Below are positions 40,714 through 44,812 of a stretch of 44,953 nt of DNA, one piece after another. A program made the translations under genes and the position numbers. Below the pieces are notes generated by a model, which was not told the origin of the DNA, searched no databases, and saw only the letters and a list, made by a program, of their open reading frames with translations. The stretch is from assembly GCA_014879845.1 (NCBI GenBank), contig JACSRI010000108.1:1-44953 (forward strand), written 5' to 3'. Within the stretch, counting starts at the first letter, position 1. Every line of letters starts with the position of its first letter. The DNA is from Opitutaceae bacterium. GTDB lineage: Bacteria > Verrucomicrobiota > Verrucomicrobiia > Opitutales > Opitutaceae.

Positions 40714-40788
<75 letters not shown>

Positions 40789-41332
40789 CCTCCACTTTCG
40801 ACGGAGACGCGCAGCACGTGCCTCCACGGGACGAGACTCGCGAGGTCTCACAGACAGCCAGGGAGCTTCGCTCCATTTCTCGCTTCATGCTGCGCAAGAA
40901 GCTGGCGAGGCGGGTCGCGGTCCAGCAGATCCGCGGCGGTGGTGCTCAAGGCACCGCTTCCGCGCTTCTCGCTGCGCAATAACGCTGGCGCGGGTCGCCG
41001 CCTGCTGCGCAAGCGGCTGGTGCCCGGGGTGGGGGTCGAATGCGTCCGAGGCTCGCTCTGGAAGTCGCTGTCAGAGTGATCGTTGTTGGAACGAGGACGA
41101 ACCCAACCGCACAAAACCGAGCCAAAGTCGTGAGGAATCCGTTAGGAATCCGAAGGTATTAGGAGGGCCACAAGAGACCCCCAGGGGCACGGGGGACATA
41201 GCGCACAACTCACCTCTCGAAAGGGTTCGCAGATTTTTCCCACCAACATCCGGGACGCAAACCCAAGCCGACACAGGTCCACTCCTATTTCCAGTTGGCT
41301 TCGCAATACGCTTCACACACACCTAGTGAGCG
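40789..41332. other. Non-coding border segment with short repeats, between tRNA-Lys and the methyltransferase fusion
   Basis: 544 bp without a supported gene. It contains a small hairpin GGAGC-TTC-GCTCC at 40862-40874, three imperfect copies of a unit starting CTGCGCAA and followed within a few bases by GCTGG (40890, 40972, 41005), and a tandem near-repeat GGAATCCGTTA/GGAATCCGAAG around 41134-41155. Base composition shifts toward lower GC from about 41060. I found no copy of the tRNA 3' end that would mark an attachment site. Confidence 0.5.
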
Positions 41333-43336
41333 ATGAAACCCCGGCGCAGCCTTCAGTCCCATGGGAATAACAGCAAGGTATACGTGCCTCTCCTCCTGAA
41401 GGTGTTCCGGAACAAATACCGAGAAGGGGCCGACGTTGTGGACTTTACGCTGGACGACCTGCGGGAGCAGGCCGCCGCTTCCGGACTACGGATCGCACGA
41501 AACTGGGCAGACATCATCTACAGGATGCGGGCCAGAACGAAACTGCCATCCGCTATACTAGTCAAAGGCTTCTACGTCCTGAGGCAGACTGGACGCGGCA
41601 AGTATCGATTCGAGAAGGCGGTCGACACGATCTTCACACTTCCGGACGATCGCGTTCAGGAAGCGCTCGACCTAACCCCGCTTCCCGTTCGTCGGCTGCT
41701 CCCGCTAGATCTAGCAGAGATCGATGAGCAGGGACTTCTCTCTGTAATTTGCTACTGCCAGCTCCTAGACCACTTCACTGGATTGAAGGTCTATCGCCTT
41801 CGCAGTCACGTGCGTAAGTCCGTCAAGAACGTAGGACAGGCGGAACTCGATGAGGTCGACGTGGGTGTGGCCTTAAGCGACGAGGAAGTGCCTGTTGTTT
41901 TCCCAATCGAGGCAAAGGCCATCGACGAGGCCGTTAACCGGGTTCAGATCGCCACGATGGTGCAATACTGCACCGAGTATTTCCCGGGGCTTCAGATTCG
42001 CCCGGTCGCAATCAAGCTAGACGAATCTGCACTCATTCACTTTCTCGAGTTCAACCCCACGGTAGTCGCTGCGGACCTCAAGATCATCAAGTCCGCGACC
42101 TATCGCCTGAAGATGTCCGACCAACAGAAGAAGCTCTTCCGACAACACAGCCAACCCGCTTCGCCAATCTCGGTCGTCAATGAGCCTCCCTCTCCACCTC
42201 CAACCGCAATAGAGCTATTCTCAGGTTGCGGCGGGCTCTCTACCGGTCTGCTGGATGCAGGCGTCCAGGTGGTCGCTGGTTTCGACAACGACGAGCGGTC
42301 GATTCAAGCCTTCGACTACAACCACACGTATCGAGGTGCACGTGGGTTTGTCGCCGACCTCTTTAACACCTCGGGGAAGGAAGTGCTGGCGAAAGCCGGC
42401 CTAAAGAAGGTCGACTTATTGGTTGGAGGTCCACCCTGTCAGCCATTCTCAATCGCAGGTAAACAAGGCGGGCTCCAAGACCGACGCGGAAACCTCGTAT
42501 TCGAGTTTGTCCGACTCGTCGGCGAAATCAACCCGCGTGCGGTTATCTTCGAAAACGTCGCGAATCTCGCCAAGATAGAAGGCGGCTCGATTCTGAAGGC
42601 GGTCGTCAAAGGACTGGAACGACTTGGCTATGACGTCCGAACAGCGCTCCTGAACGCGGCGGACTACGGCGTGCCTCAAAACAGGAAACGGCTCTTCGTG
42701 TGCGGCATCAGAGGGAAGGTTCCAACGTTCCCAAGACCAACCCATGCAGTCACGCCCATCGAGAACCTCTTCGACCCAATCTTTCGCCACGTCACATGCA
42801 AAGAAGCCATCGATGATCTGCCCGATGTCTCCGCAGCCGAGCACGAGTTGATCCACAACCACGAGGCCACTCTACACAGTCCACAGATGCTGGAGGCGTT
42901 TGCTGCGCTTCGTCACGGTGAGCGAGACAAGAAGAGCTTTCACGATCGACTGCATCCCGATCGCCCCAGCTTCACACTGCGCGCGGGAACGGGGAACTTC
43001 TCGCCGCTTCGGCCCGTTCATTACGCGCACGATCGTGTCCTGACCGTTCGAGAGTCCGCAAGGATTCAGACATTTTCAGACGACTTCATCTGGCCTGATT
43101 GGATACCAAGGCTTCAGCAGTATCGGCAGGTTGGGAACGCCGTTCCTCCATTGCTTGCGCGCCGTCTGGCAGAGCACATTGCGAAGATAGTTGGGTGGGG
43201 TCTCGATCCCAATCTCACTAAAGGCGATGCGAAGAATCGCCCTAGTCCAATACTCTACACACGCGAAGAGAAGGAACGAGCGCGACGAAGCCGGATGCGA
43301 GGGGCGTCACTGGGCGCTGTTGCCACCGGGAAGTGA
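41333..43336 (+). CDS. Candidate fused restriction enzyme: PD-(D/E)XK-like domain plus C5-cytosine methyltransferase
   Basis: 667 residues. The C-terminal part (about 290-630) is a full C5-cytosine methyltransferase: motif I FSGCGGLS (296-303), motif IV GGPPCQPFS with catalytic C369, motif VI FENVANL, motif VIII QNRKRLF, RESARIQTF and motif X QYRQVGNAVPPLLA. The target-recognition stretch between VIII and the late motifs is short (about 80-90 residues). The N-terminal about 280 residues are not part of a normal C5 methyltransferase. Residues 10-100 look like a winged helix (LDDLREQAAASGLRI, ending GFYVLRQTGRGKYRFEKA). Residues 171-195 read ELDEVD...PIEAK, giving D173/D176 and E193-x-K195, the PD-(D/E)XK nuclease pattern. 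The start is ATG 41333. Codon use and GC are unlike the host genes. Cleavage activity is inferred from motifs only; the domain could also serve recognition alone. Confidence 0.85.
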   Translation: MKPRRSLQSHGNNSKVYVPLLLKVFRNKYREGADVVDFTLDDLREQAAASGLRIARNWADIIYRMRARTKLPSAILVKGFYVLRQTGRGKYRFEKAVDTIFTLPDDRVQEALDLTPLPVRRLLPLDLAEIDEQGLLSVICYCQLLDHFTGLKVYRLRSHVRKSVKNVGQAELDEVDVGVALSDEEVPVVFPIEAKAIDEAVNRVQIATMVQYCTEYFPGLQIRPVAIKLDESALIHFLEFNPTVVAADLKIIKSATYRLKMSDQQKKLFRQHSQPASPISVVNEPPSPPPTAIELFSGCGGLSTGLLDAGVQVVAGFDNDERSIQAFDYNHTYRGARGFVADLFNTSGKEVLAKAGLKKVDLLVGGPPCQPFSIAGKQGGLQDRRGNLVFEFVRLVGEINPRAVIFENVANLAKIEGGSILKAVVKGLERLGYDVRTALLNAADYGVPQNRKRLFVCGIRGKVPTFPRPTHAVTPIENLFDPIFRHVTCKEAIDDLPDVSAAEHELIHNHEATLHSPQMLEAFAALRHGERDKKSFHDRLHPDRPSFTLRAGTGNFSPLRPVHYAHDRVLTVRESARIQTFSDDFIWPDWIPRLQQYRQVGNAVPPLLARRLAEHIAKIVGWGLDPNLTKGDAKNRPSPILYTREEKERARRSRMRGASLGAVATGK

Positions 43337-43440
43337 TCTTAGGAATCGGACGGCAACTGCCCCGGAAATAGAACTGATTCGCACACGTTTTGGCTGACAT
43401 TCAGAACGCCTCCAGTTCCTCCATACGCCCCCTCAGGTTG

Positions 43441-43497
43441 CGACGACCCCACCCCGAATGAAGGAAGGGAGGGGGCAGGCACAGGGCAGGGTCGTCG
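43441..43497. repeat. Inverted repeat between convergent accessory genes
   Basis: CGACGACCC (43441-43449) and GGGTCGTCG (43489-43497) are perfect inverted copies with about 39 bases between; the loop has further C-rich and G-rich runs that could extend pairing. An A-run follows on the plus strand, so on the minus strand a T-run precedes it. It may act as a transcript end for either gene, but it is not a standard terminator. Confidence 0.45.
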
Positions 43498-43541
43498 AAA
43501 AACTAAAGGGAATCGAAGAGAGGGCCGGCGCGACGTAACCG

Positions 43542-43964
43542 CTAGAATGGGATGTCGTCCTTGCTCGGCGGTCGTTCGTTCGCTTGAGCTTGCGCCAAGA
43601 GCGCCTCGACAACATTCCGCACATCCTTCGAGCCCAGAATGCTCCGGAGAACCTGAATGTAGCTTTCCTGATCTTCCGCATCGCGCCATTTCCCATCCCC
43701 GATCCGGTCCTGAATCTCAGTCGGATACAGTCTCAAACCATGGCGAACGCCTAGAACTTCGATTTCGTAGTTGTTCAGAGCACTAACGACAACACCAAGG
43801 CTGTGGTTCAGCATCTCGCCGTTGCTGTGGGTCTCCACTCTGCCCGCCAAAGCGCCGTCGGTGAGCTTCCCCAAAAGGTCGGCTTGTTCCTTCAGGATCG
43901 ATAGCGGAGTCCTAATGTTGGGCTTCTTCGGGATGTCGCCCCAAAAGTTTTCGGGTGTGCTCAT
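43542..43964 (-). CDS. Unknown 140-residue protein with SSB-like C-terminal tip
   Basis: 140 residues, MSTPENFWGDIPKKP at the start, then a helical LSILKEQADLLGKLT, a beta-rich centre (VVVSALNNYEIEVLGVRHGL) and the end SKDDIPF. The last five residues equal the conserved tip of bacterial single-stranded DNA-binding protein (DDIPF), which docks many repair and replication enzymes; no SSB OB-fold is visible otherwise. The start ATG overlaps the stop of the upstream EEP gene as ATGA, so translation is coupled and the two proteins probably act together. No family is recognised. GC is lower than in the host genes. Binding to SSB partners is an inference. Confidence 0.75.
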   Translation of the reverse strand: MSTPENFWGDIPKKPNIRTPLSILKEQADLLGKLTDGALAGRVETHSNGEMLNHSLGVVVSALNNYEIEVLGVRHGLRLYPTEIQDRIGDGKWRDAEDQESYIQVLRSILGSKDVRNVVEALLAQAQANERPPSKDDIPF

Positions 43965-44812
43965 GATTCAGAGGCTCCTTTCTTAAGGGTTAGCAGGATT
44001 GGAAAATGGTCCGAATACTCACGTCCTCGAGGTCGGCCCCTGTCATCGGCCAGTTTGTGATTTCGAGTCGAGCTTACAATCTGAACTCCGTTCTCGGGAA
44101 GAAACGGTATCAGTTCCGGGCGAACCAGACACTGGTCGAACATCTCCCAAAACTGAACATGATGCCCTGCGTCCGCCCGGTAGTAGGTAGCAGGAGGATC
44201 GGGTGGAGCGTCTCCGAGCAGATTCCACATCGGATTATAGAAAAACCTTCGATCCTCACCACGGACAGTCCGCGAACCGCGCAGCGCAATCCGCCTGTCG
44301 CATACGGCATGAAATGCGTCGGCAGCGACAACCCCCGGATCGAATGGGTTCATGTTGAAATCTCCGATCACCACCGTCCGTGTGTGTTGTGAAGTCCGTT
44401 CAGCTGCCTCAATCGCGTCGCGCATTCGCACTGCCCCAAACACCTGCTCGTCTTGGCTCTGGCTAACGCGACTCGGAAGGTGCACGCCGCCCACCAACAC
44501 CGACGGCCCGAGCGGAGGCGTAAAGTGCACAAACGAGAAATCGACCCCATCAGACGTCGGACGAAATCTGTCAAAAGGCAGTGCGGTAACCACGACAATC
44601 TTGCCCTTTGCCCAAGGGTTTGCACGGACGAACACTCTGCCTGTCGCTCGGTGCAGCGTTGTTAATAGGGTCCCAAGCTCGATCGCGGGCTCGGCCAGTA
44701 TGACGACGTCGACCAACCATTCAGCGCAGAGTTCTGCGAGCGGCTCCAAGACACGTCCTCGGCCGGTATTCCAAAACATTACCGTCAACATCGCCGGCCC
44801 ATTCTCTATCAT
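43961..44812 (-). CDS. Endonuclease/exonuclease/phosphatase (EEP) fold protein
   Basis: 283 residues from ATG 44812; ATG 44791 (MLTVMFWNTG) is also possible. The EEP active site is visible in order: N15 in FWNTGR, E41 in ILAEPA, VHLPSR with a His, GDFNMNP with D151 and N153, and the terminal SDH at S267-D268-H269. The family covers DNases, RNases, inositol phosphatases and sphingomyelinases. No signal peptide is seen, so an intracellular nuclease is the likeliest role. It is the first gene of a two-gene unit with the 140-residue protein (4 nt overlap). Its upstream region is cut by the contig end 141 bp away, so further operon members could be missing. Confidence 0.85.
   Translation of the reverse strand: MIENGPAMLTVMFWNTGRGRVLEPLAELCAEWLVDVVILAEPAIELGTLLTTLHRATGRVFVRANPWAKGKIVVVTALPFDRFRPTSDGVDFSFVHFTPPLGPSVLVGGVHLPSRVSQSQDEQVFGAVRMRDAIEAAERTSQHTRTVVIGDFNMNPFDPGVVAADAFHAVCDRRIALRGSRTVRGEDRRFFYNPMWNLLGDAPPDPPATYYRADAGHHVQFWEMFDQCLVRPELIPFLPENGVQIVSSTRNHKLADDRGRPRGREYSDHFPILLTLKKGASES

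What the first reader, a model, noticed from the sequence alone, without database searches (positions are those of the whole stretch)
41333..43336. Single-chain restriction-modification candidate with a C5-cytosine methyltransferase
Known one-chain restriction-modification enzymes mostly use adenine methyltransferases. Here a winged-helix-like region and a DEVD...EAK nuclease pattern (D176, E193, K195) precede a complete C5 methyltransferase. No separate endonuclease gene is next to it, which fits a fused enzyme, and the arrangement may be undescribed.
Basis: partly seen in the sequence, partly recalled or inferred. Interest (0 to 1): 0.75.

Follow-up and report, generated by a model that had tools for sequence, protein, structure and literature searches.

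The report
Fused restriction enzyme with C5 methyltransferase
A bacterial gene joins a DNA-cutting enzyme and the enzyme that protects the cell's own DNA from it into one protein; the two halves are familiar, but their fusion in this order looks rare.

Summary
Window 41333-43336 (+) is one 667-residue ORF: an N-terminal restriction-endonuclease domain (PADLOC PDLC03404 'REase_II', residues 15-261, E 1.8e-40) followed by a complete C5-cytosine methyltransferase (PF00145, 291-617, E 1.9e-65). The AlphaFold2 model (pLDDT 87) reads as winged helix (12-96) plus PD-(D/E)XK core (112-260). One correction: the conserved Asp is D173, not D176. E132, E171, D173 and K195 are kept in 125 of 125 aligned relatives; 193 is Q in 118, E in 5, S in 2; 176 is Y in 122. 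Relatives are normally separate genes just downstream of a methyltransferase: of the 80 best loci, 26 follow a C5 gene, 51 an amino-type gene, 2 are fused methyltransferase-first, 1 lies at a contig edge. None of these 80 is fused nuclease-first or to a C5 enzyme. C5/nuclease fusions are not unique: C5-HaeIII and C5-BsuBI/PstI fusions exist in the same phylum. Most likely a single-chain (Type IIC) C5 restriction-modification enzyme on a tRNA-Lys-adjacent island: a new variant of a known kind. Recognition site and activity could not be tested.

The parts
41333..43336 (+). Fused restriction-modification ORF, 667 aa (nuclease domain, linker, C5 methyltransferase)
41366..41620 (+). Winged-helix-like N-terminal subdomain, residues 12-96
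   Evidence: AlphaFold2 model and VIA-align matches over this range to linker histone H1 (Z 6.2), Rok (6.3), Fur/Zur (5.6-5.7) and part of FokI (5.4); LRRK2 (6.8) and MCM (6.7) rank above them; a common arrangement, not kinship
41666..42112 (+). PD-(D/E)XK nuclease subdomain, residues 112-260
   Evidence: VIA-align: EndoMS/NucS Z 7.4 and 7.2, a Holliday junction enzyme 6.8, BsaXI 6.8; canonical relative L105: EndoMS Z 8.2
41726..41728 (+). E132, predicted acid on the core helix
   Evidence: 125 of 125 relatives; role inferred from the PD-QxK layout described in PMC11347163 (passages)
41849..41854 (+). D173 and E174, predicted catalytic acids on strand 168-179
   Evidence: D173 in 125 of 125, E174 in 124 of 125
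41909..41917 (+). E193-A194-K195, the (D/E/Q)xK half-motif on strand 188-195
   Evidence: K195 in 125 of 125; 193 is Q in 118, E in 5, S in 2
42125..42196 (+). Pro-rich linker, residues 265-288
   Evidence: lies between the two domain matches; no in-frame start codon within it, the nearest being M261
42203..43183 (+). C5-cytosine methyltransferase domain, residues 291-617
   Evidence: PF00145 E 1.9e-65, TIGR00675 E 2.9e-60 over 293-616
42425..42451 (+). Methyltransferase motif IV GGPPCQPFS with Cys369
   Evidence: catalytic role recalled
40714..40788 (+). tRNA-Lys (CTT), likely border of a low-GC island that carries the gene
   Evidence: ARAGORN; GC 0.64-0.70 between 36000 and about 40200, 0.55-0.58 from 41100 on

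Best explanation
A single-chain Type II (Type IIC) restriction-modification enzyme. The C-terminal half methylates C5 of a cytosine in an unknown recognition site, using its own target-recognition region. The N-terminal half (winged helix plus PD-(D/E)XK core; predicted site E132, D173, E193, K195) binds the same site and cuts it when unmethylated, probably as a dimer. With both activities in one chain the ratio is fixed 1:1; a freshly made monomer could methylate before dimers form and cut, which would remove the need for a separate regulator. Shown: ORF, domain identities, model fold, conservation, habitual pairing of the nuclease family with methyltransferases. Inferred: catalysis, shared site, dimerisation, timing.
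For: REase_II profile hit at E 1.8e-40; full C5 motif set; confident model with PD-(D/E)XK-type matches, repeated with a canonical relative at pLDDT 94.3; predicted catalytic residues invariant in 125 of 125 apart from position 193; the nuclease family lies within 300 bases of, or fused to, a methyltransferase in 79 of 80 loci (at one of these, L076, the partner is only an 80-aa fragment); 57 of 57 amino-type partners scored carry SPPY, the N4-cytosine signature per PMC10855626; the window's methyltransferase groups, SH-aLRT 91, with C5 enzymes that partner this nuclease family plus one plasmid enzyme (L184) (quick tree); an engineered C5 fusion of the same order keeps both activities (PMC3039593); the assembly-timing argument is made for Type IIC in PMC12707154 (passage).
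Against: The nuclease half is very divergent: 36% identity at best (best segment) among the 80 loci kept, 137 bits against 346-425 for the ten full-length phylum matches, and a very long tree branch (7.2 and 10 changes per column). No second nuclease-first fusion was found, so nothing shows that the fusion is maintained. No promoter-like site in 40750-44000. Foldseek gave no match at E 0.001 or better for either model, and the VIA Z values of 7-8 are modest. L184, inside the methyltransferase's group, has no annotated nuclease beside it.
Confidence: 0.78

Rival explanations
1. The nuclease half is degenerate, and the protein works as a solitary C5 methyltransferase with a vestigial or DNA-binding N-terminal domain.
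For: Long branch and low similarity of the nuclease half; remnant copies of this family do occur in the phylum, e.g. split or truncated genes in L020/L024, L022, L118 and L125.
Against: E132, D173, E174, E193 and K195 are all present and the ORF is intact; the nuclease part still models confidently.
Confidence: 0.13
2. The N-domain is a modification-dependent (Type IV-like) nuclease or sensor joined to a methyltransferase, not the restriction half of a Type II system.
For: Winged-helix nucleases and PD-QxK nucleases occur among modification-dependent enzymes, once together as a wH-Mrr catalytic domain-NTPase fusion (PMC11037411, PMC11347163, passages).
Against: The family sits beside or fused to a methyltransferase in 79 of 80 loci, the layout of methylation-blocked Type II systems; a nuclease that needs methylation beside its own methyltransferase would be self-destructive (inference).
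Confidence: 0.05
3. The joined ORF is an assembly or sequencing artefact that merges two genes.
For: Draft assembly of 277 contigs; single case.
Against: In the loci examined the order is methyltransferase then nuclease, so a lost stop codon in the usual operon could not give this nuclease-first protein; both halves share the same island GC (0.56 and 0.58); no internal stop.
Confidence: 0.04

Closest known systems
PADLOC PDLC03404 REase_II family (two-gene Type II systems)
   Same: Same nuclease domain over residues 15-261 and a methyltransferase partner
   Different: Relatives are mostly separate genes downstream of the methyltransferase; here the nuclease comes first and is fused
RM.Eco29kI, engineered fusion (PMC3039593, abstract and passages seen)
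   Same: Nuclease-first chain with a C5 methyltransferase, both activities kept; its authors expected undiscovered natural cases
   Different: Man-made; nuclease of another superfamily (GIY-YIG, per PMC10855626 on its relative R.DraR1 and recall)
Natural C5 methyltransferase-HaeIII and C5-BsuBI/PstI fusions (L170, L171, L174)
   Same: One chain, C5 methyltransferase plus Type II nuclease domain, same phylum
   Different: Methyltransferase first; other nuclease families
Methyltransferase-nuclease fusions of the same nuclease family (L040, L058)
   Same: Same nuclease family in one chain with its methyltransferase
   Different: Amino-type (SPPY) methyltransferase, methyltransferase first
Type IIG/IIB single-chain enzymes (BcgI, TstI, TspGWI and similar; recalled, and named in listings)
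   Same: Nuclease and methyltransferase in one chain
   Different: Those use adenine-type methyltransferases (recalled); here only PF00145 is found

Membership tests
Type IIC restriction-modification (REase and MTase in one polypeptide) | Both domains in one uninterrupted chain | tested here: met
Type IIC restriction-modification (REase and MTase in one polypeptide) | Both activities shown | not testable with these tools
   needs protein and DNA
PDLC03404 REase_II family | Profile match over nearly the whole length (positions 4-246 of 260) | tested here: met
   E 1.8e-40, 137 bits, well below the ten full-length phylum matches at 346-425 bits
PD-(D/E)XK nuclease superfamily | Core fold of the superfamily | tested here: met
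   model secondary structure; structural matches over 112-260 are mostly to this superfamily by my recall of the entries, at modest Z and with no Foldseek match under 0.001
PD-(D/E)XK nuclease superfamily | D on the second core strand and (D/E/Q)xK on the third | tested here: met
   D173, E193, K195; no coordinates were available to measure distances
C5-cytosine DNA methyltransferases (PF00145) | Motifs I, IV (Pro-Cys), VI, VIII, IX, X | tested here: met
Type IIG/IIB single-chain enzymes | Adenine-type (N6) methyltransferase domain | tested here: not met
   only PF00145 found in Pfam at E up to 1
Modification-dependent (Type IV) winged-helix nucleases | Cleavage requires modified DNA | not testable with these tools
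   genomic pairing argues against

The most novel reading that the evidence does not exclude
A naturally evolved, nuclease-first C5-cytosine Type IIC enzyme built from a winged-helix PD-(D/E)XK nuclease family that none of 17 members placed in Pfam or NCBIfam, whose stand-alone members are paired with either C5 or predicted N4-cytosine methyltransferases. It would be the natural counterpart of the engineered RM.Eco29kI and would hold back its own nuclease by assembly instead of by transcription.
Probability: 0.45. Interest if true: 0.5.

Novelty: new variant of a known kind. Interest (0 to 1): 0.36.

Why it matters
The well-known single-chain restriction-modification enzymes use adenine methyltransferases (recalled). 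One survey judged fusions of ordinary two-gene Type II systems rare (PMC4176335, passage: 0.9% of Type IIC systems shared over 50% similarity with two-gene ones), and PMC3039593 made such a C5 fusion by hand and predicted natural ones. This gene, with its two-gene relatives and methyltransferase-first fused cousins, offers a natural series for asking what fusion and domain order do to activity and timing. The nuclease family itself is common, matched by no Pfam or NCBIfam model in the 17 members scanned, and apparently blocked by either C5 or N4 cytosine methylation (inference), which would make it a useful test set for methyl-sensitivity.

Tried and rejected
D176 as the catalytic Asp: rejected, Tyr in 122 of 125 relatives.

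Partner switch (nuclease half taken from the N4-type lineage): suggested by the first tree, not kept. Holding the window's nuclease together with the C5-partnered rows is not rejected (AU p 0.897, and the held tree scored higher), and the window's methyltransferase is placed beside C5 partners. These are quick trees with long branches; the careful search did not finish.

A second nuclease-first fusion: not found. Searched: 57 genomes, own included, with the whole protein; PDLC03404 in 387 phylum, 252 family and 372 order genomes (15, 10 and 9 with a match, own included; the sets overlap), where the longest open frames after the window's 668 were 493 and 485 and held no methyltransferase in the same ORF; 80 genome-contig loci; 21 viral loci; plasmids, 63 records, of which I read the layout of 5 (one of them unannotated and read from ORFs); phages, none. 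One exception to 'no C5 fusion' is a remnant: a 167-aa ORF in L125 joins a short C5 piece to the last third of the nuclease. The 619-aa open frame at G027 is an overlapping two-gene pair.

Known specificity: the best full-length single alignment to a solved methyltransferase is M.HaeIII, but the last third aligns better to 3g7u, whose specificity I do not know, so no recognition site is proposed. A structural match to a named restriction enzyme: none stood out; absence proves nothing. Full-length model: abandoned because MAFFT misaligned methyltransferase-only rows onto the nuclease half. Island far end: besides the gene itself only two partial matches at 80-82%, which look like other tRNA genes (not checked with ARAGORN).

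Literature: eight searches listed no paper that I could recognise as describing a natural C5 single-chain enzyme of this architecture; most subscription journals and REBASE itself are not in the library. Seen only as passages, a section or an outline: PMC3039593, PMC4081073, PMC4176335, PMC12707154, PMC10855626 (abstract and section 2.1), PMC10609329, PMC11347163, PMC11037411, PMC6764390, PMC11473606, PMC8620254 and PMC12114051 (no passage matched); the last four were not useful.

Full report
What is there. The stretch 41333-43336 (+) is one ORF of 667 aa with an ATG start; in-frame TGA and TAG codons stand 2 and 3 codons upstream, so no further domain is lost in front. Residues 15-261 match the PADLOC profile PDLC03404 'REase_II' at E 1.8e-40 (N-terminal 286 aa alone); Pfam, NCBIfam and the PDB sequences give nothing credible for this part. 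Residues 291-617 are a C5-cytosine methyltransferase (PF00145 E 1.9e-65, TIGR00675 E 2.9e-60) with motifs I, IV (Cys369), VI, VIII, IX and X. A Pro-rich linker of about 25 residues joins them. The own genome gives one match to the nuclease profile and one to the whole protein, both this gene.

Fold and active site. AlphaFold2 with 69 relatives gave mean pLDDT 87.3 and pTM 0.78. Foldseek found no match at E 0.001 or better. VIA-align over 999 of Foldseek's best 1000 chains placed residues 112-260, or parts of them, on EndoMS/NucS (Z 7.4 and 7.2), an archaeal Holliday junction enzyme (6.8), BsaXI (6.8), ACE1 (6.3) and DrdV (5.8), and residues 12-96 on winged helices such as linker histone H1, Rok, Fur and part of FokI (Z 5.4-6.3); LRRK2 and MCM chains rank higher over the same range (6.8, 6.7). 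A canonical relative (L105) modelled at pLDDT 94.3; its structural list is, by my recall of the entries, dominated by PD-(D/E)XK enzymes, EndoMS first at Z 8.2, again without a Foldseek hit under 0.001. These Z values are modest, so the fold claim rests on the consistency of the list together with the motif. Over 125 relatives (two near-copy pairs identical) E132, E171, D173 and K195 are invariant, E174 is kept in 124, position 193 is Q in 118, E in 5 and S in 2, and position 176 is Y in 122. The layout (acid on the core helix, D on strand two, QxK or ExK on strand three) is the one described for PD-QxK enzymes in PMC11347163 (passages). The E at 193 is shared with L035, L083, L076, L120 and L094; the first four branch near the base of the midpoint-rooted tree.

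Family and partners. The genome-contig scan confirmed 557 stretches and kept the best 80 loci. Within 300 bases, 26 of 80 have an upstream C5 methyltransferase gene, 51 an upstream amino-type methyltransferase gene (at L076 only a fragment is left), 2 (L040, L058) are single-chain amino-type methyltransferase-nuclease fusions in that order, and 1 (L080) lies at a contig edge. Of the amino-type partners, the 57 that matched at E below 1e-40 (52 of these loci and 5 others, two of them the same contig under two names) all carry SPPY, which PMC10855626 gives as the N4-cytosine signature (section 2.1). Hence the family appears to restrict sites protected by cytosine methylation of either chemistry; that is inference. 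Members also lie on small Klebsiella and Salmonella plasmids (63 plasmid records; examples) and in IMG/VR viral contigs (21 loci), but none was found in the phage records. Across the searches listed under Tried and rejected, the window is the only nuclease-first case and the only whole C5 fusion of this nuclease family; a 167-aa remnant in L125 joins pieces of the two.

Origin of the fusion. The usual order, methyltransferase then nuclease with touching or overlapping ends, means that a simple lost stop codon in the ordinary operon cannot yield this protein; a rearrangement, or an ancestor with the nuclease gene first, is needed. The methyltransferase is placed next to C5 partners of this nuclease family (24 of 69 such loci used) and one plasmid enzyme without an annotated nuclease neighbour (L184) (SH-aLRT 91, quick tree), so the two halves may well descend from one such system. 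The nuclease tree first put the window near N4-partnered rows, but an AU test does not reject grouping with C5-partnered rows (p 0.897). Both halves have the same base composition (GC 0.56 and 0.58), below the neighbouring chromosome (0.64-0.70 between 36000 and about 40200), and the drop begins at about the tRNA-Lys at 40714-40788: an island is likely, though its far end is not on the contig. The host phylum is probably Verrucomicrobiota in the GTDB sense: contig G211:C4 ('same phylum') has the length and match of the Lentisphaerae record VGWJ01000004.1 (inference).

Comparison with what is known. Type IIC systems are common, but PMC4176335 found that only 0.9% had over 50% similarity with two-gene systems and concluded that such fusions are rare (passage). 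PMC3039593 built RM.Eco29kI, a nuclease-first C5 fusion that kept both activities with weaker restriction, and foresaw natural ones (abstract and passages). PMC10855626 reports a putative natural fused N4-cytosine system in Roseiflexus sp. RS-1 (section 2.1). The window is therefore a new variant of a known kind, not a new kind.

How it most likely works. The methyltransferase half marks the site; the nuclease half, with its own winged helix, cuts the unmarked site, probably as a dimer. PMC12707154 argues for Type IIC in general that monomers pass through a methylating, non-cutting phase, so that assembly times the nuclease (passage). That would suit a mobile, single-gene system without a controller protein. 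None of this was tested; the recognition site is unknown.

Noticed in passing
L170 (G197:C42), L171 (G165:C156), L174 (G208:C186): Natural single-chain C5 methyltransferase fusions with a HaeIII-type nuclease (PF09556) or BsuBI/PstI-type nucleases (PF06616), methyltransferase first.
   Followed up: partly
L040:2615-4768, L058:333-2459: SPPY-type methyltransferase fused in front of the same nuclease family as in the window, 718 and 709 aa.
   Followed up: partly
L168, L172, L176, L177, L181: C5 methyltransferases with unassigned N-terminal extensions (roughly 180 to 415 aa); no PADLOC match to the extensions and, for the four put through Pfam (L181 was not), no Pfam match in the extension. Possibly further fused systems.
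   Followed up: no
L057:1848-3950: A C5 partner of 701 aa whose methyltransferase match covers only residues 33-402, so it carries some 300 further residues before the nuclease gene.
   Followed up: no
L125:1315-1815: A 167-aa ORF that joins a short C5 methyltransferase piece to the last third of the nuclease: a decayed remnant of such a pair.
   Followed up: no
window 43542-43964 (-) and 43961-44812 (-): Two overlapping ORFs on the island: a 140-aa protein without family and an endonuclease/exonuclease/phosphatase-family protein (PF03372 E 1.2e-5), which also matches phrog_24714.
   Followed up: no
L132:817-1620 and L146:3887-4720: Highly divergent relatives of the nuclease in viral contigs, without a methyltransferase detected within 300 bases and with Ser at position 193.
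   Followed up: no
L025:1228-1686: A very short patch repair endonuclease gene precedes the C5 methyltransferase-nuclease pair on a Paracoccus seriniphilus plasmid.
   Followed up: no
L118/L122, L020/L024, L022: Broken or truncated copies of the nuclease gene in relatives' genomes, a sign of decay of these systems.
   Followed up: no
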